DNA of 64,000 nt from Entamoeba invadens IP1 (Eukaryota; Evosea; Mastigamoebida; Endamoebidae). The first letter of the stretch is position 1. Each line of letters starts with the position of its first letter. Location of the stretch: assembly GCF_000330505.1 (NCBI RefSeq), contig NW_004443648.1, positions 217,930 to 281,929 on the forward strand, in the 5' to 3' direction. Below the pieces are notes generated by a model. It did no database searches. It saw only the letters and a program-made list of their open reading frames with translations, and had not been told where the DNA came from. Shown piece after piece: positions 1 through 49,620 of the stretch. A program made the position numbers and the translations under genes.

Positions 1-827
1 TAAAATTTTTAGTCTTTTTTACAGGGAAAGGGCGTGCAAGACTAAATTTTAGTTGAAAAACATTTTATTAAAAAATGTTATTCGTTTCCAAATTGTTTCA
101 CAAAACACACAACCCTTTGGTGCTTGAATTAATAAACTACAAAAAGCAAATTAATTAATAAAAATTGGGTTATGGTTTGTCTATGTGTTTAATGTAAAAA
201 CAATTTTGTTTCAAGACGTGAATAAATGTCGATGTCTCTTGTGTCAGCGTAATTCAAAGTGACAAGAAAAGGTGTAATAAACTTTATGTTTTTCTCTGTG
301 CCATTTTATAGCAAACAATAACAAATAGTCTGTTTAATAGGTGCAGTTCATTGTCTCAAATCGATGTGCACTGTTGTCCAGAACTGGTCCTTCGATAATT
401 TCCATTGGGTCGCTTTCCCGAAATTGTTGCTTAATTTATTGTATTCGAAGTGTGAAAGTTAAAAATTGCAACGTCACAAGGTGTGCAAGTTAAAGTATAG
501 TTTAGTAATNNNNNNNNNNNNNNNNNNNNNNNNNNNNNNNNNNNNNNNNNNNNNNNNNNNNNNNNNNNNNNNNNNNNNNNNNNNNNNNNNNNNNNNNNNN
601 NNNNNNNNNACCCGATATTGTCAATAGAAACAACCCTACAATTTAAACAATTAATTTGACTCTTTTCAACATAATTATCGTGTTCCAATGGATTTTTCAA
701 AAACAAGATTAGTGTTACATTATTCACAATATTTAACACTATATGGTTAATTGAATACAATTTTGCCCTGTAATAAAACTTTCAAAGTTATTGAACTTGT
801 TCGAACTCGAAAAAGAAAGTGGGTCAT
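1..827. other. Left-edge noncoding region with assembly gap
   Basis: AT-rich sequence upstream of the first gene. Positions 510-609 are N, an assembly gap. On the minus strand, a reading frame ending with TGA at 348-350 stays open for about 34 codons and contains FGKATQWKLSKDQFWTTVHI. Its composition is protein-like, and it could be the last exon of a minus-strand gene broken by the gap, but I recognise no family. No start codon or splice site can be assigned. The short segment just before the first gene carries two GAAC words (793-796 and 802-805), which resemble the GAAC promoter element described in Entamoeba. Confidence 0.5.
510..609. other. Assembly gap (100 N)
   Basis: A run of exactly 100 undefined bases, the usual placeholder for a gap of unknown size. 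Anything that appears to read through it has no support. Confidence 0.98.
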
Positions 828-3800: not shown

Positions 3801-4032
3801 ACCGTCACAAATCTTCCCAATGAAAAAGCGTTGTTTCACGTTTGGTGTTGACGACGCGCCTTCATTTTATTTAAAAAAGACATTAAAGGTCATGAAGAAA
3901 GAAAAGGTGTATGTGGTCGAAATGGGAATGAAGTTCAAACAAAGATATAAAGACTTTACACTTGCGGGAGATGGTCTTTTTATAAACAAAGACAACGTCC
4001 TTGAAAAGGTGATAATTGTTCAGTGGAAATAA
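828..4032 (+). CDS. Tandem calponin-homology / TLDc domain protein (2 exons)
   Basis: Two exons, 828-3644 and 3724-4032, separated by a 79-bp intron that starts GTTTGT and ends ATAG. Splicing in phase 0 gives about 1041 residues. Residues about 8-105 and 112-215 look like two calponin-homology domains (SNWVSVIIKEPPID; IIHQWFGNLIGQP), the pair that forms an actin-binding unit. A long acidic, Lys/Glu-rich, probably disordered linker with predicted helices follows, to about residue 850. The C-terminus is a TLDc domain (LKGWVGKEEFTIVFDS ... IFGWYNSK, then KVPESGF ... VIIVQWK), which is only complete across the splice. The ATG at 828 is the first one in frame. TLDc proteins act in oxidative-stress resistance and V-ATPase regulation in other eukaryotes; a link to actin here is inferred from the CH pair. 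Without splicing, the TLDc domain would be cut in half. Confidence 0.85.
3645..3723 (+). other. Intron of the CH/TLDc gene
   Basis: 79 bp, GTTTGT donor and ATAG acceptor, very AT-rich, in-frame stop inside. It lies between the TLDc strand ending YNSK and the next residue K, the same place as the intron in the TLDc gene at 28486-29416. Confidence 0.85.
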
Positions 4033-8868: not shown

Positions 8869-9579
8869 TCATTTGGAGTAAGTGGCTAGATCTTGATAAT
8901 ACTTCTCAAGTAAAATATCAAGATCTCCCTCTGGCAAAGCAGGACGTTGAACACCATCGTCATCAGTTATTTTCCCTTGAAGAACATCATTAAATTTCTG
9001 ATCTAACATGGGGTTAATACCTTTGAAGGACTCAACTACTTTACACGACCAGACAAAGTATCCCTGAGCTATACAATATGGTTTACTATTGATTAATATA
9101 TAATACAGGTCATATTGAGTATAGTAATTTTTATAATAAAAATATTATATATATGGTACAGAGAATACAAACAAAGCACAAGGAATGTCTGTGATGAGGT
9201 TGTTAAGGTTGTGTATCTTGTCAGCATACTTGACATACTTTGCACCAAGTGAACACGTTTTCGCATGTTCTACTTGGAGTTTTTTACGTGTGATTTTTGG
9301 GAGAGACTTATCATCAGTCACTTCTCGAACTATATCAGAAACTTCCTTTCCAAAAGTTGTTTCTATTTCTTCGAAAGTAGTGTGTGTGTCCTCCACAGTA
9401 TCATGAAGAAGCGCTGCTTGAAGAGCTTTTATGTCTGTTATTCCACACTCGATCAAGATTTTACTAACGCCAATTGGGTGTACCAAATACGTCACACCAT
9501 CTTTTCGACGCTGGTCTTGATGTTTCACTGTTGCGAAAAGTAAAGCGTCGATGTATTGTCCGAGTTGTAATTGGTTCAT
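8869..9579 (-). CDS. MESH1: MESH1/HDDC3-type (p)ppGpp or NADPH phosphohydrolase (2 exons)
   Basis: Exon 1 is 9173-9579 and exon 2 is 8869-9085; the 87-bp intron (GTTTGT...AATAG) splices in phase 2 and gives 207 residues. It belongs to the HD superfamily, SpoT-like hydrolase branch: HPIGVSKIL, then ALLHDTVEDT (the HD metal site and ED catalytic pair), and KYADKIHNLNNL. The spliced exon adds QGYFVWSCKVVESFKG, matching the helix after the family's EGW...YFxW segment. The metazoan enzyme removes the 3'-pyrophosphate of ppGpp and also dephosphorylates NADPH. No synthetase domain is present. The start chosen is the first ATG in frame (9579). Confidence 0.87.
9086..9172 (-). other. Intron of the MESH1-like gene
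   Basis: 87 bp with a GTTTGT donor and an AATAG acceptor. Later AG sites (after GTATAG or CTCAG) put the downstream exon out of frame, so this acceptor is the one that keeps the protein intact. Confidence 0.75.
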
Positions 9580-9756
9580 ATGGCTTTTTAAGGTTAAATT
9601 GTTTTTCGACAATTTGTAAAAATGAGAACTATGAGGAATTAGAATTATTAGATAGAAGATTTGAGATCAAAAGAAACAACAATAAACACACAATTAAAGC
9701 TAAAGAAAAAGCGCATCGACTTATTATTAGATATATATAAAAAGAACGTGTGAGAT

Positions 9757-11565: not shown

Positions 11566-14500
11566 ATGTTACTCATATCTCTTCTACTCATTTTCTATGT
11601 TCGAAGTGCTCCAGAGAACTGTGTCGAGTACATATCAGAGAACCATTGTGTCCAATGTAGTGATGGGTATTACCTTCAAATGGTGGACAATCCAACCACA
11701 GGGATTCCCTCTCTTCTCTGTGTTCAAAAGGGAACAATTGCGAATTGTGATGCTGAAGACTCTGGTCAGTGTGTCCGATGTCAGTCTGGGTACTACTTAA
11801 AGAATAATCAATGTGTTGGTTGTACCACTGGGTGTAACTACTGCGATGAGAACCATTGCTTCCAGTGTGGGTCTGTAGATGGTGTTCAGTTATACCTTTC
11901 TACCGATGAAACGCAATGCGTCGATTGTAGTAAATCAATCAATGATGAAGCTTGTGGAAGATGTTCGTCTGGGACGTACTTCGATACCACCACAAAGTCT
12001 TGCGCAAAGTGTTTCGACAGTTGCGCGTTATGTACGGAAGCAACGAACTGTTTCCAGTGTTCTGAAAAGTTACTTGAAAAGCACGCGGGCACTGCAGCCG
12101 ACCCAGACAAATGTGTTGACATAGTACATTGTTCGACTGGTAAGAATGATGATCACTGTGAGTCGTGTGATGCTGGCTATCGTCTTGAAGGTGGTAACTG
12201 TGTTCCATGCAATTCCAATTGCACGTTGTGTTATAAGAAAGATGACGGAAAGACACAGTGCACCAAATGTGATGAAGGTTTTGTTCTGAACAAAGGAGAG
12301 TGTCAAACGAAAGACTCATTAAATTGTGAAGTTGGGAGTGTCACTTATGGGTGTTTGCAGTGCAAGACTGGGTATTTCTTTGATAGCAATTTGGAGTGTG
12401 CAGAATGTTCTTCTGACTGTGGGTCGTGTGTTTCCGAAGCAAGTAATTGCTTGTCGTGTTCCAAAGACCATTACTTCAAGAGTGGGACAACCACGTGTAC
12501 AATGAAAGATGGAAATTGTTCGTTAGTTGATCAAGCTGGATGTAAAGAATGTGCGAACGACTTGAGTGGTGAAGGGTTGAAAAAGACTGGATACTATGTT
12601 CCGCCTGGGAAACAAGAGTGCGAAGAATGTGAAAAGAATTGTAAGCTCTGTGAAGGTGATAAAACGCATTGTACGGCATGTGTCACCAATTATGTGTTAA
12701 AAAAGAATGGCGATCATTATGAATGTTACAACAAAAGTGAGACATGTATTGCCACTGGTTTGTTGTTTTCCGTGACTTATTGAAAAGAAATACTAACTGA
12801 ATAGAAATGGGGTATTGCACTGAATGCGAGAAAGGATATTTCATCGAAGCTAATGAAAACCAAGACTGCATCAAATGTGATCCGTCATGCGGTACTTGTA
12901 AAGACAAAGACAACTGTTTGACATGCGCAAGAGACTATTACTTGCCTAAGAATATGTCGTCTGTTGAAATGAAAGGGTTCTGTCGCCCTCAAAGTGAAAT
13001 TAATTCCGTGTGTCAAGCGAACGTGAACGGATGCGAGAAGTGCAAGGAAGGGTTCTACATCAATAGCAAAGACCCAACCCAATACAACTGTACAAAATGC
13101 ACAGATGAGTGTAAAGATTGTGATTGGCTCTCAGAGGATGGGACTGATGTCACGAAAGGTCATGTCATTTGCACGTCATGTCCGACGGAATTTGGGTATG
13201 TCAATGACGAAGGCCATTGTGTGCCCTGTTCCGGGCTAAAGAATTGTGCGACGTGTGATAAAGACAAATGCGCGACATGCAATGACGGATACAAGATGGA
13301 TCCTGGATCGAAGTCATGCTCGAAAACCAATTGGGCGTTAATTATTCCCCTTGTGATCTTGGGTGTTATCATAATTGTCATTATCTTGGTACTGCTCATA
13401 GCCTTTGTGTGGTGGAGAAGAACAAAAAGCGTCAAAGCGGAGACTGCAGCGATTAAACCGTTCCACGTCTCTTCTGATCTGGAGTTGATTCTCCTTGGCG
13501 CTGATAACGAAAAGTTCCCATTGAAGACGGAGAAGTGGGAGCTGACATTCAACCTTGCGAAGTCGAAGGCTGTTGTTGATCAAGAGTATACAGAAACGTT
13601 TAACTTGGCGAATATGTCAAAGAAAGAATATTACTTTGAGTTCCATTTCACGCCAAGTCACAAATACGACTTAGATATCACACCAAAAAGTGCGACACTG
13701 AAACCATCCACTGCTGTTCCCATAACTTTCAAAATTAAGATGTTGTGCACGGCTTCAGTGAGTGACAATATTGGTATCTCGGCGATGGATATTGATGATC
13801 AGAACAAAGAAACCGCGAAATTCACGATTGTGGTTGAATCCGACTTATCTCTTAAATTGGACCACACTGAATTAAAGCCAATGATGCCGCCAATTGGTGA
13901 AGGTGCATTTGGGATGGTATTCAGAGGGACGTACAGAGGTAGAGATGTCGCCATTAAGAAAATGAAAGCGAGAAATTTGACACAAGAACAAGAGAAGGAG
14001 TTCAATCACGAAGTTTCGATGATGACACAGTTGCGCCACAGCTGTGTTGTTGAGTTGATTGGAGCAGTCTACACGGAAGGAGAAATATCTATAGTCACTG
14101 AGTTTGCTGAATATGGATCTCTGAGTAAAGTGTGGGGAAAGCACCCAATTACGTACCAACTCAAAGTGAAGATATTGGACGATATGGCTGTTGCGTTAGC
14201 TTACTTGCATCAGAACACCATTATTCATCGTGATGTCAAAGGCGAGAATTTGTTGTTGTTTTCACTCAACCCCCGTTCGCCAGTCTGCGCGAAGTTAACA
14301 GACTTTGGGACGTGCAGAAACGTATCTGAGAGAAACTTGGCATCAAAGGCGTTATCACAAGGGATTGGAACGCCAACGTACATGCCGCCAGAGTGTTTGC
14401 AGAACTCTTCGGAGTACAGTTACCCCGTCGATGTGTATGCTTACGGTATGGTTTTGTATGAGACATACACCGAGAAGAACGCGTATGAAAATGATGAGCG

Positions 14501-14867
14501 ATTCAATCAGCCGTGGATGATTCCACAGTTTGTCATTGAAGGTAACAGACTTGACAAACCCAGTGGTGTTCCAGAGAATTACTGGGACTTGACCACAAAG
14601 TGTTGGTCACAGAATCCAGAGGACAGACCGACATTTGCTGAGGTTCTCACAAAAATCGAAGGGTGGGGTGAAGACATCAAATATGCTCTGAAGAACGACG
14701 GTGACAAGCATGTGGAAGAGTCCGATGTCTCAAGTAGTTCCACTCCATCTTCCCAAAGCAAAGACATGAGTAAAGGACAAAGCAAGCAACATGAAAACGT
14801 CCCCACTGAAGCTGATGGAGTGGACAAGAGTATATCCTCGAAGAGTTCGAGTGATGATAAGCACTAA
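11566..14867 (+). CDS. Transmembrane receptor-like kinase (TMK) with CXXC-rich ectodomain (2 exons)
   Basis: Exons 11566-12757 and 12805-14867 join across a 47-bp intron in phase 1, giving 1084 residues. A signal peptide (MLLISLLLIFYVRSA) is followed by about 560 residues of cysteine-rich repeats with many CXXC pairs, as in Entamoeba TMKs and furin-like repeats. One membrane span lies at about 574-599 (ALIIPLVILGVIIIVIILVL). A beta-rich cytosolic segment at about 620-750 resembles an MSP-like fold. A kinase domain at about 758-1035 has GEGAFGMVFRG, VAIKKM, IHRDVKGENLL, LTDFG and GTPTYMPPE. All catalytic residues are present, and it groups with tyrosine-kinase-like (TKL) serine/threonine kinases. 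The tail is Ser/Lys-rich. Likely a surface sensor; ligand unknown. The in-frame stop at 12781 is inside the intron and is not a mutation. Confidence 0.92.
12758..12804 (+). other. 47-bp intron with a TACTAAC branch-site-like word
   Basis: GTTTGT donor, AATAG acceptor, and TACTAAC at 12791-12797, seven bases before the acceptor. Splicing keeps the CXXC periodicity (…SETCIAT-E-MGYCTEC…). Confidence 0.85.
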
Positions 14868-24290: not shown

Positions 24291-25868
24291 ATGGAAAGTG
24301 ATTTCAATGAAATAACCGATGAGCAATTAAAGGAATCTGTCGAGAGAATGAAGACGTATGAGGAACTTTTAAAAGCAGCAACTTCACGCCAAAAATACAA
24401 ACAACTTCCCGAATATTCAATTTTAGAGGAACTTTTGACCATCGAGGCGGCGGAAAAGATCGAAGATGTCGAATTAGTCTTTGTCGTTGAGTCGAACAAA
24501 GAAAAGCGAGTGAACGAAATCATAGCGAAAATGAACTCCCTGCAACGTCGATTTCCGTTAATCCGACTTGGCCTCTTACACTTTTATACAGACAAAGGGA
24601 CTCTCTGTTATTCCCAATGCAAATTCTTTGCTCCAACTTCATCGATATCGGAGTTAGTCAACTTAAGTTGGTCATACACTGATTACAAAGCCGTCACAGT
24701 GAACTTCGACGATCTAATCACAAACATTTCATACATCGATTGGCAACGCAAGTTGAAGAACGTCTTTGTGATCTTGAATCAAGGCATAGTCACAAAAAAT
24801 CCAATTAAGCCACAACTTGAATTCTTCAACCACGTCTTTGTGACGTCCACCGCACTGTATAATGGAAGTGAACAACAGTCTTTAGATCAATTAGTTCTTT
24901 TGAGTAAGAAGTGTTCACACATTTTTTACAGTCGAGTCAATTTGTTCTCCCCGTTCATTACCAATGGTATTTGGTTCAATCAATTACTCCCAATAGAATT
25001 GAATGCACTCACAATGGAAGATAAAATCGCCGCGTTAAGACAACTCGAGCAGAACCCAAACTTCGACGATGTCCAGAGACTCAAGGGCGTCGTTGTGACA
25101 GTACCAACTAACTACACCAGTGGAGATTCGTGTTTGTATACATTTGGCGTCAGTCCGACTTTATCAACAAAGCAAAGTGTGATAGAAATAAACCCTCAGA
25201 TCGAGCACCACGGAGCTTTCAAAGTCATGATGAAAGGGATTATAGATGGCGAGAATGTCGCAGTGAAGTACGATCATGACCTTGTTAATAATACTTTTGA
25301 TAATTACGTTGGCATCTTAGAGGGTTATTCCGTCACACAGAAGCTTTTAGATGAGTTCAACACGATGAATGAACGTCAGGTGAAATGTGTCGATTGTAAA
25401 CTCTTCATCGCAGACATTACTTTGCCAGATGGGATCTATCCAGTCTCACATTTACGACACTTAGCTGAAGGAAAGATGCTCTTTCTAGTCGAGACACTCC
25501 TCACAGACTCGTTTATTAAGTGGAATTCAAACAATGGAGACGTCAACTTCACGAACTATTCTGCAACATTAAATTGCTTCAGTCATTATTCCTTCATTCG
25601 TTCCGCTAAACGGTTACTAGTTGCTGATATCCAAGGGTGTCTCCACAACGATGTGTACTTAATCACAGACATGGCAATTCATCATGAAATGCTCTGTCGA
25701 TTTGGTGCGAGTGGCGATAATAGTAGAGGCGTTGGGATGGTCCACTTCTTAAAGACGCATGTCTGCAACCAAAGTTGTATAAAATTGGGTCTCGACAAGG
25801 TTTTCATCTGTGATAAAGACGAAGAAATGGTGACACAGGCGGTATTGCCTGTTATAACCGTGAAGTAA
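24291..25868 (+). CDS. Alpha-kinase with N-terminal vWA-like domain
   Basis: 525 residues. A helical N-terminus (about 1-50) precedes a von Willebrand A-like segment (about 60-235: VELVFVVESNKEKRVNEII, FPLIRLGLLHFYTD). The C-terminal 220 residues are an alpha-kinase domain of the MHCK/eEF2K type: FKVMMKGIIDGENVAVKYD (catalytic Lys), MLFLVETLL (core Glu), LLVADIQGCLHNDVYLITD and GMVHFLKTHVCNQSCIKLGL, with the HxCN...C zinc site. The vWA plus alpha-kinase plan is that of Dictyostelium VwkA, which regulates myosin II and vacuoles. Key residues look present. The usual DLQG is DIQG. Confidence 0.88.
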   Translation: MESDFNEITDEQLKESVERMKTYEELLKAATSRQKYKQLPEYSILEELLTIEAAEKIEDVELVFVVESNKEKRVNEIIAKMNSLQRRFPLIRLGLLHFYTDKGTLCYSQCKFFAPTSSISELVNLSWSYTDYKAVTVNFDDLITNISYIDWQRKLKNVFVILNQGIVTKNPIKPQLEFFNHVFVTSTALYNGSEQQSLDQLVLLSKKCSHIFYSRVNLFSPFITNGIWFNQLLPIELNALTMEDKIAALRQLEQNPNFDDVQRLKGVVVTVPTNYTSGDSCLYTFGVSPTLSTKQSVIEINPQIEHHGAFKVMMKGIIDGENVAVKYDHDLVNNTFDNYVGILEGYSVTQKLLDEFNTMNERQVKCVDCKLFIADITLPDGIYPVSHLRHLAEGKMLFLVETLLTDSFIKWNSNNGDVNFTNYSATLNCFSHYSFIRSAKRLLVADIQGCLHNDVYLITDMAIHHEMLCRFGASGDNSRGVGMVHFLKTHVCNQSCIKLGLDKVFICDKDEEMVTQAVLPVITVK

Positions 25869-26499: not shown

Positions 26500-27435
26500 A
26501 TGCCTCTCATACAAATAGAGCATTTAGTAAACAACGGGATCATCAATGTCGTCTCTTCTTTCTCACCAGACCAAACATTTTTTGGGACCAAAATGGATGA
26601 AGCTGATAACAAAGAGTTATATGAAAAACATCACCATGTGGATACCGTCGAAGTCAAAAAAGAAGGGAACACATTGCCGGAAAGAAGACGAGACAAAGAG
26701 AAGTGCGAAATTGACAAGAAGAGTGAGGCGGACATTTTAGAGATGATAAAAAAGACGGTGATAGGGGATGAGAATATCGACGGTGTCACCACAGAAGTGT
26801 CGACCCTCAAAAAGCGCATCGAAGAGTTTAACAACAACGTTGCGATATACGACGACATGTTGCGCGAAGAGGAATTGAGTCGTGTGTGTGGTGAAGGTAT
26901 TGAGAATGGGTGGGTGACGTCCTTAGAGAAGTGGACTGGATGTGATTCGTGTCGTGTCATCTACGACTCAACGAATGGGTTTACTGCTGACACGTTATGG
27001 GGTGCTTTACGGTTAGCCAATTCCGTTGCTCTCATTGTAGAAACGACTGAGAATGATGTCTTTGGGTCATTTCATGGAGTCATTCCGATGCACCAACATT
27101 TCAATGTGAGTGTCGACTCGTCGCATTTCCTCTTCACCTTTTCAAACAAATTCAACACGGGCCACGTCAAGTTTCCCGTCTTACCGACAAACACGAAGAT
27201 GTTAGATGTCTTTAAAGGATATAATTCGTGGGTGTATGGCATCGAAAAAGGATTTTGGATCCACGCACAACACAATAAGAGTTACGTCTGTTCGACTTCT
27301 GCGAATGGACCATTGACGGATGGGTATGAAGACCCGACATTAATGGGAGGAGTGGTATTTACAGGGTCGGTCTATCCTCAACGGTTTACAACAAAGAGAA
27401 TAATTGGGCTTGAGATGATACTTGAGCAAGAATAG
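26500..27435 (+). CDS. TLDc-domain protein, array gene 1
   Basis: 311 residues, intronless. The N-terminal 140 residues are charged and helical (KEGNTLPERRRDKEKCEIDK; a coiled-coil-like stretch around VSTLKKRIEEFNNNV). The TLDc domain runs from about 148 to the end: SLEKWTGCDSCRVIYDS, ADTLWGALRLANSVALIVE, NDVFGSFHGVI, HFLFTFSNKF, and the closing TTKRIIGLEMILEQ. TLDc domains are found in OXR1, NCOA7 and TLDC proteins linked to oxidative stress and V-ATPase control. The function of the Entamoeba expansion is unknown. First of five such genes in 9 kb. Confidence 0.82.
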   Translation: MPLIQIEHLVNNGIINVVSSFSPDQTFFGTKMDEADNKELYEKHHHVDTVEVKKEGNTLPERRRDKEKCEIDKKSEADILEMIKKTVIGDENIDGVTTEVSTLKKRIEEFNNNVAIYDDMLREEELSRVCGEGIENGWVTSLEKWTGCDSCRVIYDSTNGFTADTLWGALRLANSVALIVETTENDVFGSFHGVIPMHQHFNVSVDSSHFLFTFSNKFNTGHVKFPVLPTNTKMLDVFKGYNSWVYGIEKGFWIHAQHNKSYVCSTSANGPLTDGYEDPTLMGGVVFTGSVYPQRFTTKRIIGLEMILEQE

Positions 27436-27549
27436 AGGCGACATGAATGATTCGATTTGATGTGTTACTATAAATTATTAAATTTTTTGTTGTTGTTCTC
27501 CTTATGCAAAATGAAAGAACTTGTTAATGGAACGGAAAAATAAAGAATC

Positions 27550-28293
27550 ATGGAAGAGATCCAGGAGGCACTTAAGAGCATCAAGCAAATCAAAAACAGT
27601 CTCACGGAAGACACCGTCATTTTCAATTTGACAAAATCGATATACACTGTTTTAGACAAGATCGTCACACGCGTCTTTCAAGAACATTTCCCTTCTCTCC
27701 CAACGGCGCAGAGTCTTCAAGAGTGTAAAGAGCACAAACACATTTTAAATATCGAAAATGTTTATGAACAAAAGGACAAAGAAATAATGAGCGAGTTGTT
27801 CTATTTGGAAGAGTGGACCGGCCAACACGAGTTTCGTATTATGTATGACACAGACATCCATCCGTATACCAAAAACACTCTCATCGAAACATTAAACGGT
27901 AAACGGAATTTGACTCTTCTCTTCCAAACAAAAAATTCCGACTTGTTTGGATGTTACTTAGAAGCTCCAGTGAATATCAATGAGTATGGCTATAGCGAGG
28001 ATTTCGACATTTTCATTTTCTCATTAAAAAGCCCTTATTTGCTCAAGCCAACTAAATACACTAAACTCCGCTCATTCGCAGACCTTTGTCACTTCTCGTT
28101 GTATTTCTCAGATAACGAGGAGGACGTTCTAGAAGTCGATGGCGCGTTCACTCTACGATTCCCTCTTTTAGATGAAGTCTGCGAAATTTCAACCGAAATA
28201 TCACTCTCGTTCAAAAATGCAAGTGTAAAAGACTTCATCGGAGGGTATAACACTTTCGCTCTCAAACGGTTACTTGTCTTGGAATCCTATTAA
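27550..28293 (+). CDS. TLDc-domain protein, array gene 2
   Basis: 247 residues, intronless, 114 bp after array gene 1 on the same strand, but its sequence is quite different from that neighbour. A helical N-terminus of 85 residues precedes TLDc: YLEEWTGQHEFRIMYDT, LIETLNGKRNLTLLFQTK, SDLFGCYLEAPV, DIFIFSLKSP and a closing FALKRLLVLE. The W-T-G and IMYD positions match those of gene 1. The low identity argues against very recent tandem duplication. Confidence 0.82.
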   Translation: MEEIQEALKSIKQIKNSLTEDTVIFNLTKSIYTVLDKIVTRVFQEHFPSLPTAQSLQECKEHKHILNIENVYEQKDKEIMSELFYLEEWTGQHEFRIMYDTDIHPYTKNTLIETLNGKRNLTLLFQTKNSDLFGCYLEAPVNINEYGYSEDFDIFIFSLKSPYLLKPTKYTKLRSFADLCHFSLYFSDNEEDVLEVDGAFTLRFPLLDEVCEISTEISLSFKNASVKDFIGGYNTFALKRLLVLESY

Positions 28294-28485
28294 GCATTAC
28301 AATTGTCCCAGAGCAAGACAAATTCTATACGCTATAGTTCTTTTATTACATAAAAAATCATACCGAGACCATCACTTTTATGTCTCGAAATTATAACTGT
28401 TCTATTGTTCTTATTACTTATGGTTTGATGGGTGGAATTATATTTTCTAATAAAACAAACTAAAAACAAAACAAAGATATACAAA

Positions 28486-29416
28486 TTAATACCATCTAAC
28501 TGCAACGACACGGTGAATATCGAAGGTGGATTCGTTGGTAAAGTAGTAAAAGCCCTTACCGGAGTCGTCAGTGAATTGCTTTTTGAATTGAGTGTGGAAA
28601 AAGGACTTAGAACCTACAGGTCCCGACGGGTTCTTGATTTTCATGAACCGTTTTGTAGTGATGGAATAAGTCTCCTCCAGGTTTGGCCAGATACATAGAG
28701 ATTTTCCATGGTGTTTTGGTTTGAATTTTTTTGGTTCCGGACTGTTAGGGCTTCTCAATGAGAATGCGAAATACTTCTTGTCGAATTTGATGTATTTGTA
28801 TGACTTCCCCGCTTTAGGTATTTTCTATCTATAAATTTGTTTAACTATATTTTATAATAAAAGAATTAGAAATGTATAGTATATGTATATTACAAACTTT
28901 ATGATTGTAGCAGCCGAAGGAATAGCCTTCGGACGAAATCACTACTATCATTACATCAGTTAACCCACAGATGTTCGAGTTAATATCACGGGCCATCTTC
29001 CCGTCTTCATCGCTGTCATATACGATATCGTAATAATTAAGACCAACCCAAGAGGATAAAGTATTGTAGAAAGTTGTTAACGTGAGCAAGACGTCCAAGT
29101 TTCTTAAACGCACTTCACTCTTTGAAAAGTCGTTCAGGCGACTTTGTGAAGGGACAGCACCACCACGTTGTGGAGAATAAAAGAACCCACTTTGCTCTCG
29201 ACGGGCTTCGTTAATGCGTGTTAACTCATTTTGCTTCTTCTTAATATCCTCGAGCCTGTCGCGCTCTGTTTTGTCGATGAAGTCTTCATCATAAGATACG
29301 ATTTGTGCGGAGTCAATGCGATTAATGATGTAATCCAAAGTGAATTGTGGACTACACCCGATATTGTTCAGGTCAGTCGTGGATGACGACACACTTGTCG
29401 AGTCGGCTTTATCCAT
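28486..29416 (-). CDS. TLDc-domain protein, array gene 3 (2 exons)
   Basis: Exon 1 is 28898-29416 and exon 2 is 28486-28824, joined across a 73-bp GTTTGT...GATAG intron in phase 0, total 285 residues. The Ser-rich N-terminus and a charged helical part (DKTERDRLEDIKKKQNELTR) precede TLDc: LSSWVGLNYYDIVYDS, MIVVISSEGYSFGCYNHK, then KIPKAGKSY...YFAFSLRSP and VVAVRWY. The intron falls exactly where the CH/TLDc gene is interrupted (YNSK in that gene, YNHK here). Orientation is opposite to genes 1 and 2. Confidence 0.83.
28825..28897 (-). other. Intron of TLDc array gene 3
   Basis: 73 bp, GTTTGT donor, GATAG acceptor, phase 0, in-frame stop inside. Confidence 0.8.
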
Positions 29417-29562
29417 CGTATCGTATTCTAATCAACACAGTTCTTCTTTATATTTGATTTTACTATAGTTAAAGTATTATATTTGAATAGTATAGGGTTA
29501 TAGAAGTCAAAAAATCAAATTGATCGGCATATCCTTGAAAATAAACTGGTTTTTGAAATTGC

Positions 29563-29766
29563 ATGGAAAATGTGAATGTAGTGGAAAACAAAATAACAGT
29601 AAAAAAGAATTGCCGCTTGAACCGCAAAAAAAGAATTGGAGAATTTTTTGTTTTCGGCGAAAAGATAAGTTCAATTGGGAATTTGAGAACAAAAACAATC
29701 GACTATTTTGAGTCGCTTAAAAGTTCTTCGGAATCTGAAGTTCATTTTCAATACTTCCCTTATTGA
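29563..29766 (+). CDS. Doubtful small ORF, 67 aa
   Basis: Begins MENVNVVENKITVKKN and contains a basic stretch and GEKISSIGNLRTKTIDYF, which faintly recalls the phasing of Entamoeba leucine-rich-repeat proteins. Higher GC than the flanks. It could be a fragment of a lost gene; too short to judge. Confidence 0.25.
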   Translation: MENVNVVENKITVKKNCRLNRKKRIGEFFVFGEKISSIGNLRTKTIDYFESLKSSSESEVHFQYFPY

Positions 29767-29905
29767 AAAACAAATCAGTGTGTAAGACGATGTTCCCGGT
29801 TTTCAGGATAATTTTAAACTGTCAGTAAAGTTTTTTTTTAATTATTACGTGAAATACTTTGGACGCAAATTATTGGGAGGTGTATATATATTATATATTA
29901 TTATT

Positions 29906-29952
29906 ATAATATTCCATACAGAAATATTACATATTTCGGTATGGAATATTAT
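29906..29952. repeat. 47-bp near-perfect palindrome
   Basis: Arms of 22 bp (29906-29927 and 29931-29952) pair at 21 of 22 positions around a 3-base centre; each arm contains ATATTCCATAC or its complement. Long enough to form a cruciform or RNA hairpin. Confidence 0.7.
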
Positions 29953-30334
29953 ACGAAACTTAATAAATAAATTTAATTAAAAAAAACTAATTATATAGTT
30001 GTATAATTTGAATCAAAAGTCCAAAAACAGTATTATTATCTAACCATTATAATGGTTTCTATCAATTATAATTCAATTAATAAAAATAACATAAAAAATA
30101 GTAATCAATTTGATTTTTTCTGTAGCAATTTTCATTAATGGTGAAATAATAGAACAAAAAATAACAACGAGTCAAAAATCAACTTTATTATAACATTTTC
30201 TATAATAGATAATTTATTTGTTATATATTATTTAATAAAAAGATCTAAAGAGATAAAAAAAAACATTAAAAAAAGAAAAAAATAATCAATTGCAAATTAC
30301 TAAAAATGCCGTCGAGTAAGAATAATTTGTCAAA

Positions 30335-30385
30335 AAAAAATGAAGTATAAATTATTAACAAATAATAATTTATATTTCATTTTTT
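30335..30385. repeat. Inverted repeat, 23-bp arms
   Basis: Arms at 30335-30357 and 30363-30385 match at 22 of 23 positions with a 5-base loop; core TATAAATTATTA. An outer GTCGA/TCGAC pair (about 30311 and 30404) may extend the fold. Confidence 0.6.
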
Positions 30386-30589
30386 AAAAGAAAAAAAAAT
30401 TCGACGAACTAAAAATAACCTATTTTTAGTAAAATAATTTATAGTTTTATTATAAAAAGAAGCAACTATAATAATTAAAATTATTTATTAACTTCCTTTG
30501 ACTTTCCAAAAAATTCCTTTTTAGATTTAATTGAAACTAATAATTATAATAAAATAAATTAGAACGAATAGTAATAACACCATACACAA

Positions 30590-31336
30590 TTACTCCATTT
30601 GAATGACAACAATTCTCATTACTTTAAAATGATTTTCCGTCTTGTCGAACTCGCACTCTCCGCACTCAAAAGTTTCTCCCAAGCTTTCAATTTTGCTATT
30701 CAAGCCAGTCTTAGCGACGGTAATATTTCCGTAGTAATCCCCAAATTGGAACAAATTATTTCCGTTAATCCAGACATAGAGTCCGCAGTCCAACTTGAAC
30801 TCTTCATTCTTCAAATTGAACTTTTTCATCGATTTCTGTGTAATTTTGAAAATGAAAGAGTTTGGGTCTTTCACTCGTTCTCCATGTTCCGTCACGTTTT
30901 TGGAACAATACCCGCCATATACCGGCCCTTTCTGTGTCCCAACAAAGAAGTACAAATTCTTTTTGCCGTAAATCTTCGAGAAGAATTCCTTATTGGATTG
31001 CCCACCAAAAGTATTTGTGTCATAGATAACACTATACCCTTTCTTCATCGAACTCCACTCTTCTAATGTTTTCAGACGCTTATCTATAAAAGAAAACCCA
31101 CTCTCTATAAACGTGTCTTTGGGGATATTCTGTAAGACTACACGTGGCTGGGAGACACTGTAATCCCTCAATGAAAATAAGTCATTGTTCGAGTCAATTC
31201 GAAGTAATGGATCAATTTTACGTGAGTTACCTATTATAACCTTTTCAATTAGACAAGATATCTGCGTTAAAGCCTTTCTAGTGACTAAGTCTGTGACGTT
31301 CTTAATCGTTAATTGAAGTTCTTCAATCACGTCCAT
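30590..31336 (-). CDS. TLDc-domain protein, array gene 4
   Basis: 248 residues, intronless, ATG start. A 90-residue helical N-terminus precedes TLDc: LKTLEEWSSMKKGYSVIYDT, KIYGKKNLYFFVGTQKG, VYGGYCSKNV, SFIFKITQKS, ECGECEFDKTENHF and the closing VMRIVVIQME. The intron found at GWYNSK in related genes is absent here (GGYCSKNVTEH is continuous). Minus strand, like array genes 3 and 5. Confidence 0.82.
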   Translation of the reverse strand: MDVIEELQLTIKNVTDLVTRKALTQISCLIEKVIIGNSRKIDPLLRIDSNNDLFSLRDYSVSQPRVVLQNIPKDTFIESGFSFIDKRLKTLEEWSSMKKGYSVIYDTNTFGGQSNKEFFSKIYGKKNLYFFVGTQKGPVYGGYCSKNVTEHGERVKDPNSFIFKITQKSMKKFNLKNEEFKLDCGLYVWINGNNLFQFGDYYGNITVAKTGLNSKIESLGETFECGECEFDKTENHFKVMRIVVIQME

Positions 31337-31939
31337 TGTATGTGTGTCGACTTACAAGTTGAGCTTTTATCGCTGTTTCAATCCAAAAGTAGAGTGTTCT
31401 ATTTCCTTTGCGATTTTTCTTAAGAATCAATTTACAAATAAAATGGTTGTTTTTATTATAATTTATACTATTCGATCGACGAAAAAGAAGAGAATTTTCC
31501 TGATCTTTTTTTTTGTTCTTTTTCCAAAAAAAAATCAAAAAACCCGTTTTTTCTGTCGTAAACCGATATCTTCCCTTTATTTAAAGATTAACTTGAACGA
31601 ATTATCGTTTTAATTGAACAGTTTTAAAAATCAAAGGTCTTAATAAAATAATATCTAGAGTTCTCTAATTTTATTTCTATTATTTTAACTATAAATCTTG
31701 GTTTCAAAATACTATTTGACTAATAATTGTCTGACAATAATTATAAAATAAAAGAAAAAATAACAAAACTGTTAAAAACTGTTAATGTGTTTCATATATA
31801 TAGATATTCGTTTAAATACTATAATTATATTATATATTTCGTATTGTTTACAATGAATTATAATTTTGGTAATCATTAGCGATAATTGTTATATTAAAAG
31901 AGTATATAAAAACATTGGAAGTTGTGATTCAATATTATA

Positions 31940-32944
31940 CAGTCAATATTCGATATAAGGATTTATTCGATATAAGGGAGAAAAATAAGAGGAAGCCCTT
32001 ATATCGAATAATAGAAAAAAAAATAAAAAAAAAGAAATTTATGTGTTTGCTTTTTGTTGGTTATTTCAATTTAAAACCCCCAAAATGGTAATAATTGGAT
32101 TAATTTGTCACTAAGTTAAAAAGTCAATTAAATTAAATTAATATAAAAACTATGTTTTATTATATTTTTAATTGAACATTTTTAATTAAAATAAACAAAA
32201 TACAATAATTATAATAAAAATAGATAAACAAGTAAATTATATTTTGAAATAATACAATGAATGTATTTGCATTCTTTTAAAAAGTATACTTTTCTTGACA
32301 ACATATAATAATCAATTGGTATTCCCGCTTTACGAACTTAATGTAACCAATTGATCATTGCTTCCTCAAGTTCCAGGTTTTGTAGTTTCTTATTCATTTA
32401 TACGAGGATAAAAAAATATCAATGTTTCTTTAGAAATTGAACGCAAATGATAAACTTGCTTTGGAGAAATTACTATTTTCAGTTGTTGTCCGACAACTTT
32501 GATTACTTTTTGTGAATTTTGATAAGGATCAATGAATTCAATAATTTTTATTTTGTCTCGTAACATCAATGATATTCTTATATTAACACATTTAGATTGC
32601 ATTAAAACTTAATGATTTAACAGATTTATTTGAAGTTTTTAAGTCAAAACAAAATTAGATACAAAAGTTTTATTTATTATGTTAATTGTGTTAATATATT
32701 CGTCTTTGTTTTTTGATTTATTATAAAATTAATTATTTATTTAAGATAAAAATAATTGCCAATTGTTTTCAAAACATAGGCAAAGTGTTTATTTTGGTTA
32801 GAAAAAAATAATAATCAAAAAAAAATAATTTTTGTGACAAAAAACAAACCGAGGTATTTTTTTGTTAATTATATAATTCCTCATTTTTTCCCTTATATCG
32901 AATAACATTGGTACACGGTATTCCCTTATATCGAATAATGACTG
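31940..32944. mobile_element. Decayed Tc1/mariner-pogo-like element, 1005 bp
   Basis: Terminal inverted repeats start CAGTCA at both ends; the outer 21 bp match at 20 positions (core TATTCGATATAAGG) and the element is flanked by TA at 31938-31939 and 32945-32946. The TATTCGATATAAGG word recurs inside each end: 31964-31977, an inverted copy at 31997-32010, and 32891-32904. CAGT ends with a TA duplication are typical of the Tc1/mariner/pogo superfamily. The interior holds a broken transposase remnant with two recognisable DNA-binding helix-turn-helix parts. Most of the catalytic region is missing. Confidence 0.83.
32281..32602 (-). pseudogene. Broken pogo/CENP-B-type transposase N-terminus
   Basis: The first part (32390-32602) reads RISLMLRDKIKIIEFID ... 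SPKQVYHL, like the first helix-turn-helix of pogo/Tigger/CENP-B transposases. A frameshift near 32390-32397 moves to a second frame reading LELEEAMINWLH, then a stop at 32338-32340, then VRKAGIPIDYYMLSRKVYF. This matches the second CENP-B-type DNA-binding domain (L..W....R..G.P....L...A). So there is one frameshift and one nonsense codon, and nothing recognisable of the DDE catalytic domain. It is inactive. Confidence 0.75.
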
Positions 32945-33279
32945 TATCAATATATATAAAAGCGATTTCGGCCGGGCTGCATGCCCTAACCGTAACATCT
33001 ATTTTTGGTTTTCAATATAGTTAAATAGAAATAAAAACAACTATTTTATAGTTAATTTGTTACCGTTTTCAATTGACAGGGTTGAAAAATATGTGGAAAA
33101 ATACAAAAAATGATAAAACAACTATAAATTAAACATATAATTTATTCTAATATATAGTAAATAATAAAAATATAAAAATAGAAGCAAAATTTATGGAACA
33201 AAAAAATATGGCAGATGATCGTTTTTGAATTATATTTAAAAATCATAAATTATGGATTAAATTATTACATAAAAGGACG

Positions 33280-33382
33280 CAAACATCATTAATTTGATGT
33301 TTGTGTATTAAAAAGTAATATGAACATCATATTTACGTCGTTTGTAATCAAAAGGAAATACGAACATCATAAATATGATGTT
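33280..33382. repeat. Cluster of AACATCAT inverted repeats
   Basis: CAAACATCA faces TGATGTTTG (33280-33303, 6-bp loop), a lone AACATCAT sits at 33323-33330, and AACATCATA faces TATGATGTT (33363-33382, 2-bp loop). The word occurs five times within 103 bp in alternating orientation. Confidence 0.6.
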
Positions 33383-33736
33383 TGTATAAATTTTTGTAAA
33401 ATTAACTAAAAAAATATTTAATAGTTTACAAATGATTAAAATGAACATCTAATTTATATTTTTAGATAAGTCTTTTTGCACCCATATTAATCGTAGGAAG
33501 GAAAATCTAATAAAAATAATAAAAATTATAGTTTTTTTACATCTACTTTTTTTTTAATTATGAAAAAAAGAGATTTTGATTAAATATAATTAACTAGAGA
33601 GACAGGACGGACATAGGGACGAAGGACGGGGAAATGGGCCAAATTACTTCTTTTGTGGTTTAGGGATGTCCTCCCGCTATAAAGGGCGCGTTTTCAAAAC
33701 TATATAAGGAATCATATTTTTACAATGAATATACTA

Positions 33737-33974
33737 CAGTTAACGGAAAAAGTGGGATGCTGAGAAAAAGGGGGATGCTCATTTTAATATTAATTAATTT
33801 AATATTATTAATAATAAATAATTAATATAAATTTGTTCAGTTTTTTCATTTTATTAATTTTTTGATTAATAATTTATATTAAAATTAATAGTAAATTTAT
33901 TGTTTTTCAATTGAAATTCACCAATAGTTACGAGCATCCTCCTTTTTCGAGCATCCCCATATTTCCTCCTACTG
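33737..33974. mobile_element. Non-autonomous TIR element (MITE), 238 bp, TA-flanked
   Basis: Left end 33737-33780 and right end 33932-33974 are imperfect inverted repeats that begin CAGT and share GGGATGCT followed by GAAAAAGG and GGATGCTC, so each end holds the GGATGCT word twice. TA lies on both outer sides (33735-33736 and 33975-33976). The interior is AT-rich with no coding capacity. The end structure fits a Tc1/mariner-pogo type MITE. The repeats differ in their outer 10 bases, so it is probably old. Confidence 0.7.
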
Positions 33975-34240
33975 TAATATTTATATAGCTTTAGCTTAAT
34001 TTTTCTTTGTTTGGGTCACTTTTATTGGTGATTGTCTTATTTTAATTAAGAATCTGTTATTATTTTACTGTTTTGGGGGTCCCCGCCACTTGGTGGTGGG
34101 GTGAATCCTTGTATTAATATAATTGAATTATATGAATAACTATTACACTCAATAAAGAAATAAAAATGTATTATATAATATAACAAAAATATTAAAATAA
34201 CTGGTACACTATTGCACCCATAACAATAAACCAAAAGTAT

Positions 34241-35299
34241 TTAATTCCACTGAATAGAGTATATAGACAACACCTCAAATCCGTTTCTTAATCCGGTTTT
34301 GAAGGGGAGTGGTTTTCCATTCTTTTCAGTATAAAAGTTGGGCATTTCGTTATGGAAATAGCACTTCAGCATTCTTGTGTTCATAAATTCGTTAATAACT
34401 GCAAAAAAGACGGTGAACCCTTTTTGGGCTACAACGACACTATCTGCCTTTTTATCGGAAACCAATACGGTCTCGCCTATCCCCTCTTTTTTCGAGTAAC
34501 ACAACACATCCTTTCCCGATGTCACAAAAACAAAGAAGGACTGGTCGTCGGTGCAAAAGGAATTTTTAGTGATTTTCTTTTCGGAGTACAACCCGAAGAA
34601 GAGTGAAGAGTTTGTCGTTCTGAAGACTAACATGATGTTTTCCTTGCCTTCGATTGCGTTCACCAATTTGGAGATATTCAATTGATTCTGGAAATATACG
34701 ACACACGGATTTTGACGAACAACATATTCTGAAAGAGACGCTATATGCTCAAATCGTAAGATCTCTTCTAATCGCTGAAATTCGATGGTCCGAGCGGATA
34801 ACGGACGCTCAAAAGTGATGTCATCACTCTTCTTCGATTTAATACTCTGAACCTCTCGCTCACGTTTGGAAGTCATTTCTCTCCGAAGCTCTACAATCTT
34901 CTTCCGATAAAGACCTAAGTTTGTGATGACATCTTTCATCACATTGTTCCTCTCAGGATTACCTTCGACGGATGTGATGTACTGCTCAATACATGTCATC
35001 TCTTCCCCGCGCATTTTGGCCACTGCAGCTATCACCAGGGGTGGAATATCTTCGCGATACAATTCACAGTACGTCGTCGTGTCTTCCACAAAGACTTTTG
35101 CTAACGAAATCTCAGAAACATCGATTTTGAAGATCCTGACGATGTCTTGATCGATGTTTTGCGAATTCATTAAATACAAAAACGCGTTAAGTTTCGTACC
35201 ATATTTTTGAAGCACTCGCAAGTCTTTAATTTGCATACGAAGGTTCTTTATCTCACTGCGTATTTCAGTGATATTGGGGTCAACCAAAGTCGATGACAT
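34241..35299 (-). CDS. TLDc-like protein, array gene 5 (divergent)
   Basis: 352 residues, intronless. A long helical N-terminus (about 1-180, EIRSEIKNLRMQIKDLRVLQ; ELRREMTSKREREVQSIKSK) is followed by a weak TLDc domain: NPCVVYFQNQLNISKLVNAI, EGKENIMLVFRTTNSSLFFG, LYSEKKITKN, SFFVFVTSGKD and a final EVLSIYSIQW. The opening W and YDS positions are replaced. Most divergent member of the array; identified by the middle strands and position. Confidence 0.72.
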   Translation of the reverse strand: MSSTLVDPNITEIRSEIKNLRMQIKDLRVLQKYGTKLNAFLYLMNSQNIDQDIVRIFKIDVSEISLAKVFVEDTTTYCELYREDIPPLVIAAVAKMRGEEMTCIEQYITSVEGNPERNNVMKDVITNLGLYRKKIVELRREMTSKREREVQSIKSKKSDDITFERPLSARTIEFQRLEEILRFEHIASLSEYVVRQNPCVVYFQNQLNISKLVNAIEGKENIMLVFRTTNSSLFFGLYSEKKITKNSFCTDDQSFFVFVTSGKDVLCYSKKEGIGETVLVSDKKADSVVVAQKGFTVFFAVINEFMNTRMLKCYFHNEMPNFYTEKNGKPLPFKTGLRNGFEVLSIYSIQWN

Positions 35300-35456: not shown

Positions 35457-36227
35457 TTAGAAAATGATATCCTCATCGTCGTCGACAATACTTGTCGGTT
35501 TTCCGTCTCCCTTTGAGTCTGTAGTAGTATTTTTCTTCTTTAAAGCGGCCGCTGCAATTGCGCGTTGTTCGAGCTCTTTTTCCTTCTTCTCGATGACTTT
35601 CTTCTTCTTTTTCTGAACCATTTTCAATCGGAAGAATTCCTCACGCTCGGATTCGTCGAGTTCAGTTTCGATGTATTTGATTGTTGCTTTAGTCATTGGG
35701 ATGACGACGTGTTCGAGAGCATTCACACGACGATTAGTGATTTTAATGACCGTGTCGAGTGTTAAGAAAGCTGTTTGAAGACTTGCGAGTCTAACAAGAG
35801 AATCAAGGGCTTTAATGTATTGTTGACGTGCATTTGAGACGGACTGACCACCTTTAGAAAGACCAGTTAAGTCTTGGAGTCGAACTTCTTGATGGGATTG
35901 GGAGAAGACGGGTAACTTAATACCTGCAATATTCTCTTGTGTCAACTTCACCTTATAAGTCGCGTTTTTGACATTTTGGACAACAACGTGAGAAAACTCA
36001 CCCGCAGTGTATTTGGCTGATACCAAAGAAAACGACGACGCTTTCATATAGTCACGCATGGCCATTTTTTCATCAATGATCTTCTTCAAAATCGACTTGA
36101 ACTTTTGATTCAACGCATCAGACTTCCTCTTCAACAAATCGTGGCCAAGTTGTGCGCCTATCAACTTGCTTTTGTAAGTCGTCATTTGCATACGCGTAGG
36201 GAAGACGGTGTATCTCTTATCTGACAT
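35457..36227 (-). CDS. VMA8: V-type ATPase subunit D
   Basis: 256 residues starting MSDKRYTVFPTRMQ, the conserved N-terminus of V1 subunit D; an ATG 57 bp further upstream is in frame but adds unrelated residues. Family marks are GAQLGHDLLKRKSDALNQKF, the LVSAKYTAG segment and NALEHVVIPMTKATIKYIE near residue 180. Subunit D is the central rotor shaft of the V1 sector, coupling ATP hydrolysis to proton pumping into lysosomes, phagosomes and other acidic vesicles. The C-terminus is Lys-rich then acidic (DDDEDIIF). It lies next to the TLDc array; TLDc proteins bind V-ATPase in other eukaryotes, but adjacency alone proves nothing. Confidence 0.95.
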   Translation of the reverse strand: MSDKRYTVFPTRMQMTTYKSKLIGAQLGHDLLKRKSDALNQKFKSILKKIIDEKMAMRDYMKASSFSLVSAKYTAGEFSHVVVQNVKNATYKVKLTQENIAGIKLPVFSQSHQEVRLQDLTGLSKGGQSVSNARQQYIKALDSLVRLASLQTAFLTLDTVIKITNRRVNALEHVVIPMTKATIKYIETELDESEREEFFRLKMVQKKKKKVIEKKEKELEQRAIAAAALKKKNTTTDSKGDGKPTSIVDDDEDIIF

Positions 36228-36514
36228 GTGTTTGCTTTCGAGTTTCTTTTGCAGAAAAACACAGCATTTTTGGTGATGGACCATCTAGTATTTTGTATAA
36301 TATATTTACTATTATCGTATAGTTTGAATAGTAAAGTATTTTAATTTTTGGTTGATTAATTATTATAGTAAAAATACTATAAATATAGGTCGATAAAAAC
36401 AAAAATGAATCAGAAGAAAAACAAGGAAGATATGATAATGTTATATATAACATTTACTCAGTTAAAAACTCAGAAACAAAAAAAGTCAAAAAAAAGAAAC
36501 TTGAAATTTCAAAA

Positions 36515-48885: not shown

Positions 48886-49620
48886 ATGGAGAGGGAACAC
48901 ATCAATCAATTGATCACATGTATATCAACACTACCAGATGATGACAAATACAAACAAATATTTTTTGCATTTGCAGAGTGTTTAAACGACTTGACCAAAC
49001 CGAGTTGCTTTGACGAGAACGATAAAGTTAATACACCTCCACAACACCACAATGAAAGGGATAAAAATTGTAGTTTAAAACCTTCACTTAATGACACAAA
49101 AGGTATTCCAAAGAAAATTGAACACGAAGTACCAACAATTGAGATTAACGCATTGGACTTACTTTCAGGATCAACACCGATGATCACACACATTCATACC
49201 GTCTTAACTTTTGTTCAGTTGAAGACATACAAAGTTGTTTGTGATACAACTTCTAACACACAAAAGGATTTGGTCAATTTTTTAAAGCAAACACAGACGT
49301 CTTCATTATACTTCGAGACAGACTCGGGCCGCACTTTCTCGATATTTTTCTCAAAGCCACAAAAGAAGATACTGTTTATTACACACAACGAAAAACCTCA
49401 ATGCATCTCTCCAATTGGCGATTGTGATCTGAAGTATTCCAATTCGGAAGACGTCATCATGACATTTGGAAATGATACCAATTTCCTTCGCGTTGGCACT
49501 TTAGGCAAAGCAAAGAGTTTTGCGTACTTCTTCGACAACCTCTTTCCAATGAACAATCCTTATTTTGTCAACATATCTAAGTTCAGAACAAATCGAATAG
49601 TTCTCTTCGACTTGAATTAA
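48886..49620 (+). CDS. TLDc-like protein (isolated copy)
   Basis: 244 residues, intronless. A helical N-terminus and Ser/Lys linker precede a weak TLDc domain: TFVQLKTYKVVCDT (in place of the usual W...IYDS), LVNFLKQTQTSSLYFETDSG, FSIFFSKPQKKILFITHN and a final FRTNRIVLFDLN. It lies 13.6 kb from the end of the TLDc array. Its low resemblance makes this a fold-level call from the strand order and the closing RIVLF motif. Confidence 0.65.
   Translation: MEREHINQLITCISTLPDDDKYKQIFFAFAECLNDLTKPSCFDENDKVNTPPQHHNERDKNCSLKPSLNDTKGIPKKIEHEVPTIEINALDLLSGSTPMITHIHTVLTFVQLKTYKVVCDTTSNTQKDLVNFLKQTQTSSLYFETDSGRTFSIFFSKPQKKILFITHNEKPQCISPIGDCDLKYSNSEDVIMTFGNDTNFLRVGTLGKAKSFAYFFDNLFPMNNPYFVNISKFRTNRIVLFDLN

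What the first reader, a model, noticed from the sequence alone, without database searches (positions are those of the whole stretch)
26500..35299. Array of five TLDc-domain genes in 9 kb
Five adjacent genes encode a variable helical N-terminus plus a TLDc domain, in orientations + + - - -. Two more TLDc genes lie in the same window (828-4032 and 48886-49620). Most eukaryotes have only a handful of TLDc genes in the whole genome. The copies share strand order and a few positions (W-x-G, IYDS/T, YG/FG) but little sequence, so the array is old or fast-evolving. Known TLDc proteins act in oxidative-stress defence and V-ATPase regulation; a large diversified set may reflect a lineage-specific signalling or protection system.
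Basis: partly seen in the sequence, partly recalled or inferred. Interest (0 to 1): 0.75.

Follow-up and report, generated by a model that had tools for sequence, protein, structure and literature searches.

The report
Five-gene TLDc cluster in Entamoeba invadens
Five neighbouring genes of a reptile-infecting amoeba carry the TLDc fold that regulates the cell's acid pump in yeast and animals; they are divergent members of a family of roughly two hundred such gene matches in this genome, and most of the ones sampled lack residues that a mouse relative needs to bind the pump.

Summary
The source is Entamoeba invadens: gene 3 equals NCBI protein EIN_053490, and EIN_251800 is contained in another genome frame. 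The array does not look like a recent tandem duplication: each member's best relative found lies elsewhere in the genome, and genes 1 and 2 have likely orthologs in E. nuttalli (51% and 45% over full length; E. dispar 59% over part of gene 1), closer than any paralog found. Four loci keep residues whose mutation weakens or abolishes V-ATPase binding in mouse Ncoa7; in 70 other sampled domains (not a random sample) only the FG glycine is universal (70/70), while the positions of G896 and E938 are kept in 14/70 and 0/70. V-ATPase genes lie somewhat nearer TLDc genes than uniform placement predicts, but the sample is tiny and a larger test did not complete. Function is inferred. No paper found describes the expansion.

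The parts
26500..27435 (+). Array gene 1: 311 aa, N-terminal region + TLDc domain (residues ~140-306)
   Evidence: Pfam 21.3 bits, below cut-off 24.5; leave-out profile E 2e-26; likely orthologs P0035 E. nuttalli 51% full length and P0034 E. dispar 59% over residues 79-311
27550..28293 (+). Array gene 2: 247 aa, TLDc domain (residues ~84-245)
   Evidence: Pfam 38.8 bits; E 8.9e-28; likely ortholog P0002 E. nuttalli 45% full length
28486..29416 (-). Array gene 3: 285 aa, two exons (29416-28898, 28824-28486), intron 28825-28897; equals EIN_053490
   Evidence: Splice model; identity with P0032; leave-out profile E 3.5e-34
30590..31336 (-). Array gene 4: 248 aa, TLDc domain (residues ~88-247)
   Evidence: Pfam 34.8 bits; E 1.8e-24
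34241..35299 (-). Array gene 5: 352 aa, long helical N-terminus + divergent TLDc domain (residues ~186-351)
35457..36284 (-). V-ATPase subunit D gene (only PF01813 match in the assembly), 157 bp upstream of gene 5 on the same strand
   Evidence: PF01813 204.1 bits; one match in the genome
828..4032 (+). Further TLDc gene of the window: weak CH-like N-terminus, long charged middle, C-terminal TLDc; intron 3645-3723 at the matching place in the domain as in gene 3
   Evidence: leave-out profile E 2.5e-15; CH 19.6 bits, below cut-off 26
48886..49620 (+). Further gene with a predicted TLDc fold but no sequence-profile match

Best explanation
The array is a chance or recombination-driven gathering of five old, separately maintained members of a very large Entamoeba TLDc family (201 merged match intervals in this genome), not a recent local tandem expansion. 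Shown: TLDc domains; best relatives found elsewhere; likely orthologs in other Entamoeba species for genes 1 and 2; several canonical residues missing in most sampled family members. Inferred: each protein is a non-enzymatic docking protein in which the variable helical (or, in some paralogs, myristoylation-signal) N-terminus chooses location or partner and the TLDc beta-sandwich binds a protein surface. The most likely surface is the V1 part of V-ATPase or a neighbouring endo-lysosomal machine, with paralogs specialised by compartment or stage. If V1 is the target, binding must tolerate the loss of residues that matter in Ncoa7.
For: Domain and fold. Dispersal: best relatives found for genes 1-5 are C72:1083020 (38%), C83:99168 (39%), C72:78465 (33%), C72:293610 (38%) and C83:99147 (30%; C100:46273 at 32% scores about the same); in a tree of 74 sampled domains no two array genes are sisters and their pairwise distances (3.1-5.0) lie around the family median 4.0. 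Age and maintenance: genes 1 and 2. Size: 201 merged intervals from six searches. Two tiers. V-ATPase link, weak: subunit D gene beside the array; nearest TLDc match 0.3, 15.9, 26.8, 4.6 and 2.0 kb from the D, C and three full a-subunit loci, Fisher p 0.0024 for these five and 0.022 for the four looked up after the idea arose; one E. histolytica TLDc protein was in a Rab8A pull-down band that also held a V-ATPase subunit (PMC6321534, passages).
Against: Residues whose alanine mutants in mouse Ncoa7 lose V-ATPase binding (PMC8608904, passages) are mostly not kept in the 70 sampled domains: G815 24/70, G896 14/70, E938 (weakened binding) 0/70. In the same paper the isolated TLDc domains of Tbc1d24 and Tldc1 did not pull down V-ATPase. 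The proximity test: I left out a broken fourth a-subunit match (C213) with no TLDc match on its contig; counting it at p = 1 gives 0.007 for all and 0.057 for those looked up afterwards, and with TLDc density 1.5 times the mean 0.024 and 0.13. A search for subunits A/B found none. No matched gene control. In the pull-down paper the binding of these proteins was said to remain open. No expression or binding data. Low tree support for genes 1, 3 and 4 (0.38-0.75).
Confidence: 0.48

Rival explanations
1. TLDc was exapted in Entamoeba as a general protein-interaction module (like ankyrin or LRR repeats), with many partners unrelated to V-ATPase; the helical N-termini make scaffolds and the TLDc domain the binding head.
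For: Several residues needed for V-ATPase binding in Ncoa7 are mostly missing while the FG glycine stays in 70/70 sampled domains; varied N-termini, from 15 to about 280 residues before the domain among the expansion frames read, some with myristoylation-like MG starts; a weak CH-like N-terminus in the 828 gene; the isolated TLDc domains of mouse Tbc1d24 and Tldc1 did not pull down V-ATPase (PMC8608904, abstract).
Against: All five mouse family members interacted with V-ATPase in some assay (PMC8608904, abstract); the yeast ones regulate its assembly (PMC11066047 and PMC11094088, passages); V-ATPase genes lie somewhat near TLDc genes here.
Confidence: 0.37
2. The array arose by local tandem duplication followed by strong divergence, so that distant copies only look closer because array genes evolve faster.
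For: Five genes in 9 kb is denser than uniform placement gives; gene 3 and the 828 gene of the same window share the intron position and are each other's best match among window genes (E 6e-16); weak similarity between array genes, e.g. genes 1 and 2 E 7e-7; low tree support for three of five positions.
Against: Each array gene has a better relative elsewhere; genes 1 and 2 were already distinct before the Entamoeba species split.
Confidence: 0.1
3. The oxidative-stress reading: the set protects against reactive oxygen, as OXR1-type proteins do.
For: TLDc proteins are linked to oxidation resistance (PMC5614904, search listing); a TLDc expansion in Paramecium bursaria was read this way (PMC7702705, passage).
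Against: No expression data here; alanine changes at the same six residues also weakened protection by Ncoa7-B (PMC8608904, passage), and several of them are mostly missing in the sampled domains.
Confidence: 0.1

Closest known systems
Canonical TLDc proteins: OXR1/NCOA7/TBC1D24 (animals), Oxr1 (yeast)
   Different: 10-13% identity in those structural alignments; most sampled members lack DG-x-S (4/70 have it), the first glycine of the glycine-rich hairpin (14/70 have it) and the C-terminal glutamate (0/70); no TBC or LysM domain in the array frames scanned (genes 1, 2, 4, 5 and exon 1 of gene 3).
mEAK7 / yeast Rtc5 (N-myristoylated TLDc proteins)
   Same: Helical N-terminus followed by TLDc (gene 5 model); some paralogs elsewhere in the genome start with myristoylation-like MG motifs, as mEAK7 and Rtc5 are myristoylated (PMC9174246, PMC11066047, passages).
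   Different: None of the five array proteins starts with MG; the mEAK7 C-terminal domain that contacts V-ATPase subunit D (PMC9174246, passages) is absent, as array proteins end within 5 residues of the TLDc match.
TLDc gene expansion in Paramecium bursaria
   Same: Protist with a TLDc family reported as highly duplicated (PMC7702705, passage).
   Different: Different lineage; not compared by sequence here.

Membership tests
TLDc domain family (Pfam PF07534) | Profile match over the curated cut-off | tested here: inconclusive
   3 of 5 array genes over 24.5 bits (genes 2, 4, 5), gene 1 at 21.3, exon 1 of gene 3 alone none (spliced gene 3 was not scanned with Pfam); all five found by a leave-out lineage profile.
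TLDc domain family (Pfam PF07534) | TLDc fold | tested here: met
TLDc domain family (Pfam PF07534) | Buried FG glycine (Ncoa7 G845) | tested here: met
   G in 70 of 70 sampled expansion domains and 4 of 4 canonical ones, the five array genes included.
Canonical V-ATPase-binding TLDc proteins (OXR1/NCOA7 type) | DG-x-S loop, glycine-rich hairpin and C-terminal E needed for V-ATPase binding in Ncoa7 | tested here: not met
   Array genes: G815 position G in genes 1, 3, 4; S817 position S in gene 4 only; G896 position G in gene 1 only; E938 position E in none. Depends on the alignment.
Canonical V-ATPase-binding TLDc proteins (OXR1/NCOA7 type) | Physical binding to V-ATPase | not testable with these tools
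   Needs pull-down or structure of a complex.
OXR1-type oxidation resistance proteins | Protection against peroxide stress | not testable with these tools
   No expression or mutant data available here.
mEAK7/Rtc5 group | N-terminal myristoylation glycine | tested here: not met
   Array proteins start MPL, MEE, MDK, MDV, MSS.

The most novel reading that the evidence does not exclude
Entamoeba has turned a usually handful-sized V-ATPase regulator family into a repertoire of about 200 diversified TLDc docking proteins that differ mainly in their targeting arms, so that acidification (or assembly) of different endosomal, phagosomal and cyst-stage compartments is set by different paralogs, with V-ATPase and TLDc genes kept near one another.
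Probability: 0.18. Interest if true: 0.78.

Novelty: new variant of a known kind. Interest (0 to 1): 0.5.

Why it matters
TLDc proteins are few in yeast (two; PMC11066047, passage) and humans (seven; PMC8329711, abstract start in listing). A genome with about 200 TLDc matches, most of the sampled ones without residues known to matter for V-ATPase binding, would show either how a pump regulator can be multiplied and specialised, or that the TLDc fold is a general binding module. Entamoeba feeds by phagocytosis and survives as cysts (recalled), so regulation of acid compartments is a plausible and testable target. Members are already labelled 'TLDc domain-containing protein' in UniProt-derived names, but I found no description of the family's size or its two tiers (searches; in-paper finds).

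Tried and rejected
Recent tandem-duplication origin: disfavoured. A duplicated block was considered because contig C83 holds a gene-2 relative (+) followed by a TLDc gene (-); the second is closest to L028 of the gene-4 clade (32%), too weak to claim block duplication.

Giant TLDc proteins: one search lists open frames of 3000-9085 aa around some matches. In the two loci that I could read this far (L017, L027) the frame runs through 3.7 and 4.3 kb of N, so these are artefacts of unread sequence, not giant proteins; the other large frames were not checked.

V-ATPase A/B genes: Pfam PF00006 found none in the genome; stretches of N may hide them, so nothing is concluded. A larger V-ATPase proximity test with control genes did not complete (see below); uniform placement is the only background. 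TLDc-to-TLDc distances (22.7% within 16 kb, 31.5% within 27 kb) against the uniform expectation suggest a modest density excess.

Papers: TLDc + Entamoeba gave 3 papers, of which 1 names an Entamoeba TLDc protein in the passages read (the other two were seen only in the listing); 'TLD domain' + Entamoeba gave 0; finds in PMC6414313 and PMC2886108 gave no 'TLD'. Searches gave nothing used.

Full report
What is there. The 9-kb stretch holds five genes, + + - - -. Genes 1, 2, 4 and 5 are single open frames. Gene 3 is spliced: a 73-bp intron (28825-28897) with a GTTTGT start joins the listed frame to an exon ending at 28486. The resulting 285-aa protein is identical to NCBI protein EIN_053490 of Entamoeba invadens IP1, and EIN_251800 is contained letter for letter in the frame of locus L028, so the genome is E. 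invadens. The 828-4032 gene has an intron at the matching place in its TLDc domain.

How special is the array? The genome search with PF07534 gave 150 matches, the most the tool scored, out of 247 candidates; all are marked over the cut-off. Searches with each array protein added 51 match intervals, 201 merged in all. Genes 1 and 2 fell into one interval, a protein with two domains counts twice, and the window's 828 and 48886 genes are not among them, so 201 is a rough lower bound; duplicated contigs would lower it. Five genes within 8.8 kb is the densest cluster among these and rarer than uniform placement gives, though Pfam matches alone show no clear clustering.

Origin. No array gene has its best relative in the array, and in a tree of 74 sampled domains none are sisters (supports 0.99 and 0.96 for the partners of genes 2 and 5, 0.38-0.75 for genes 1, 3 and 4). 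Gene 1 aligns over its full length with an E. nuttalli protein (51%) and over residues 79-311 with an E. dispar one (59%), against 38% for its best genome paralog; gene 2 aligns to 45% over its full length with an E. nuttalli protein (54% within the domain, against 39% for its best genome paralog). Among the 74 sampled domains those foreign proteins hit genes 1 and 2 best. These two genes were therefore most likely distinct before those species split and have been kept since. For genes 3-5 no such ortholog came up, but the searches reach only relatives that share five-residue words.

Two tiers. Four loci score 84-131 bits with Pfam, above a gap to 59. These keep DG-x-S, FG and the GGG start of the hairpin in 4 of 4, and the C-terminal E in the 2 whose frame reaches that far. 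The other 70 domains sampled (6 of them from the window; the rest chosen as high Pfam scorers or near relatives of array genes, not at random) keep the FG glycine in 70, G815 in 24, G896 in 14, E938 in 0; DG-x-S occurs in 4, and GG near the hairpin in 6. In mouse Ncoa7 G815A, G845A and G896A abolish and S817A, L926A and E938A reduce V-ATPase binding (PMC8608904, passages). Four of these six residues are buried and their mutants fold badly, so the losses here may reflect a re-packed core rather than loss of binding.

Neighbour. The next gene, 35457-36284, is V-ATPase subunit D (PF01813, 204 bits), one match in the assembly. I then looked up the A/B family (no match), subunit C (1 locus) and subunit a (3 full loci and one broken one, C213). 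Distances from match to match to the nearest TLDc are 0.3 (D), 15.9 (C), 26.8, 4.6 and 2.0 kb (a). Fisher p is 0.0024 for these five and 0.022 for the four found after the idea; with TLDc density 1.5 or 2 times the mean the four give 0.06 and 0.11. C213 carries no TLDc match; counted at p = 1 the values become 0.007 and 0.057. In the 2.0-kb case one other frame lies between the two genes. This is a lead, not a result.

Mechanism. Established elsewhere: the TLDc domain of mEAK7 docks on V-ATPase subunits A, B and E (PMC9174246, passages), and the yeast TLDc proteins promote V-ATPase disassembly (PMC11094088 and PMC11066047, passages). Inferred: the Entamoeba proteins are docking proteins with paralog-specific N-termini. 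Whether the docking surface is still V1 is open; I put the whole statement at 0.48 and the V-ATPase reading of the complete set at 0.18, both lowered a little after adding the C213 row.

Literature. In the held library I found one Entamoeba paper that names a TLDc protein (EHI_134660 in a Rab8A pull-down, PMC6321534, passages) and none that describes the family.

Noticed in passing
window 35457-36284 (-): V-ATPase subunit D gene (only PF01813 match in the assembly) directly beside the TLDc array, 157 bp from gene 5 on the same strand.
   Followed up: partly
window 31937-32947: About 1 kb between genes 4 and 5 bounded by 24-bp inverted repeats (96% complementary, ATACAGTC...GACTGTAT), like a Tc1/mariner-type element (family recalled, not searched); no frame of 100 aa or more is listed in it.
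   Followed up: partly
C23:399709-404617 (L012): A TLDc gene lies 2 kb upstream of a V-ATPase a-subunit gene on the same strand, one frame between them; a second a-subunit (C114) has a TLDc match 4.6 kb away.
   Followed up: partly
window 24291-25868 (+): Alpha-kinase domain protein (PF02816, 93.5 bits) next to the array on the other side.
   Followed up: no
window 9145-9612 (-): Frame that reads like a Mesh1/SpoT-type HD hydrolase (by eye, not searched).
   Followed up: no
window 11566-14867 (+): Cysteine-rich region, transmembrane-like segment and kinase-like region split over two frames with a short gap; could be an intron, a frameshift or a broken copy (by eye, not searched).
   Followed up: no
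G000 loci L009, L011, L018, L021, L024, L025, L017: Of 29 TLDc frames checked, 4 match a simple myristoylation pattern at the first Met (L011, L018, L024 and a minus-strand frame of L017), two more begin MG without matching it (L009, L021) and L025 has it at a later Met; the six in the tree group together with the four canonical loci.
   Followed up: partly
L048 (C216), L050 (C40), L067 (C26): Short-branched group in the tree, so a recently multiplied TLDc subfamily. Separately, 19 of 31 proteins found are labelled E. histolytica; whether they belong to the same subfamily was not compared.
   Followed up: no
window 510-609: Run of 100 N just upstream of the 828 gene, so the true start of that gene or its neighbour may be hidden.
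   Followed up: no
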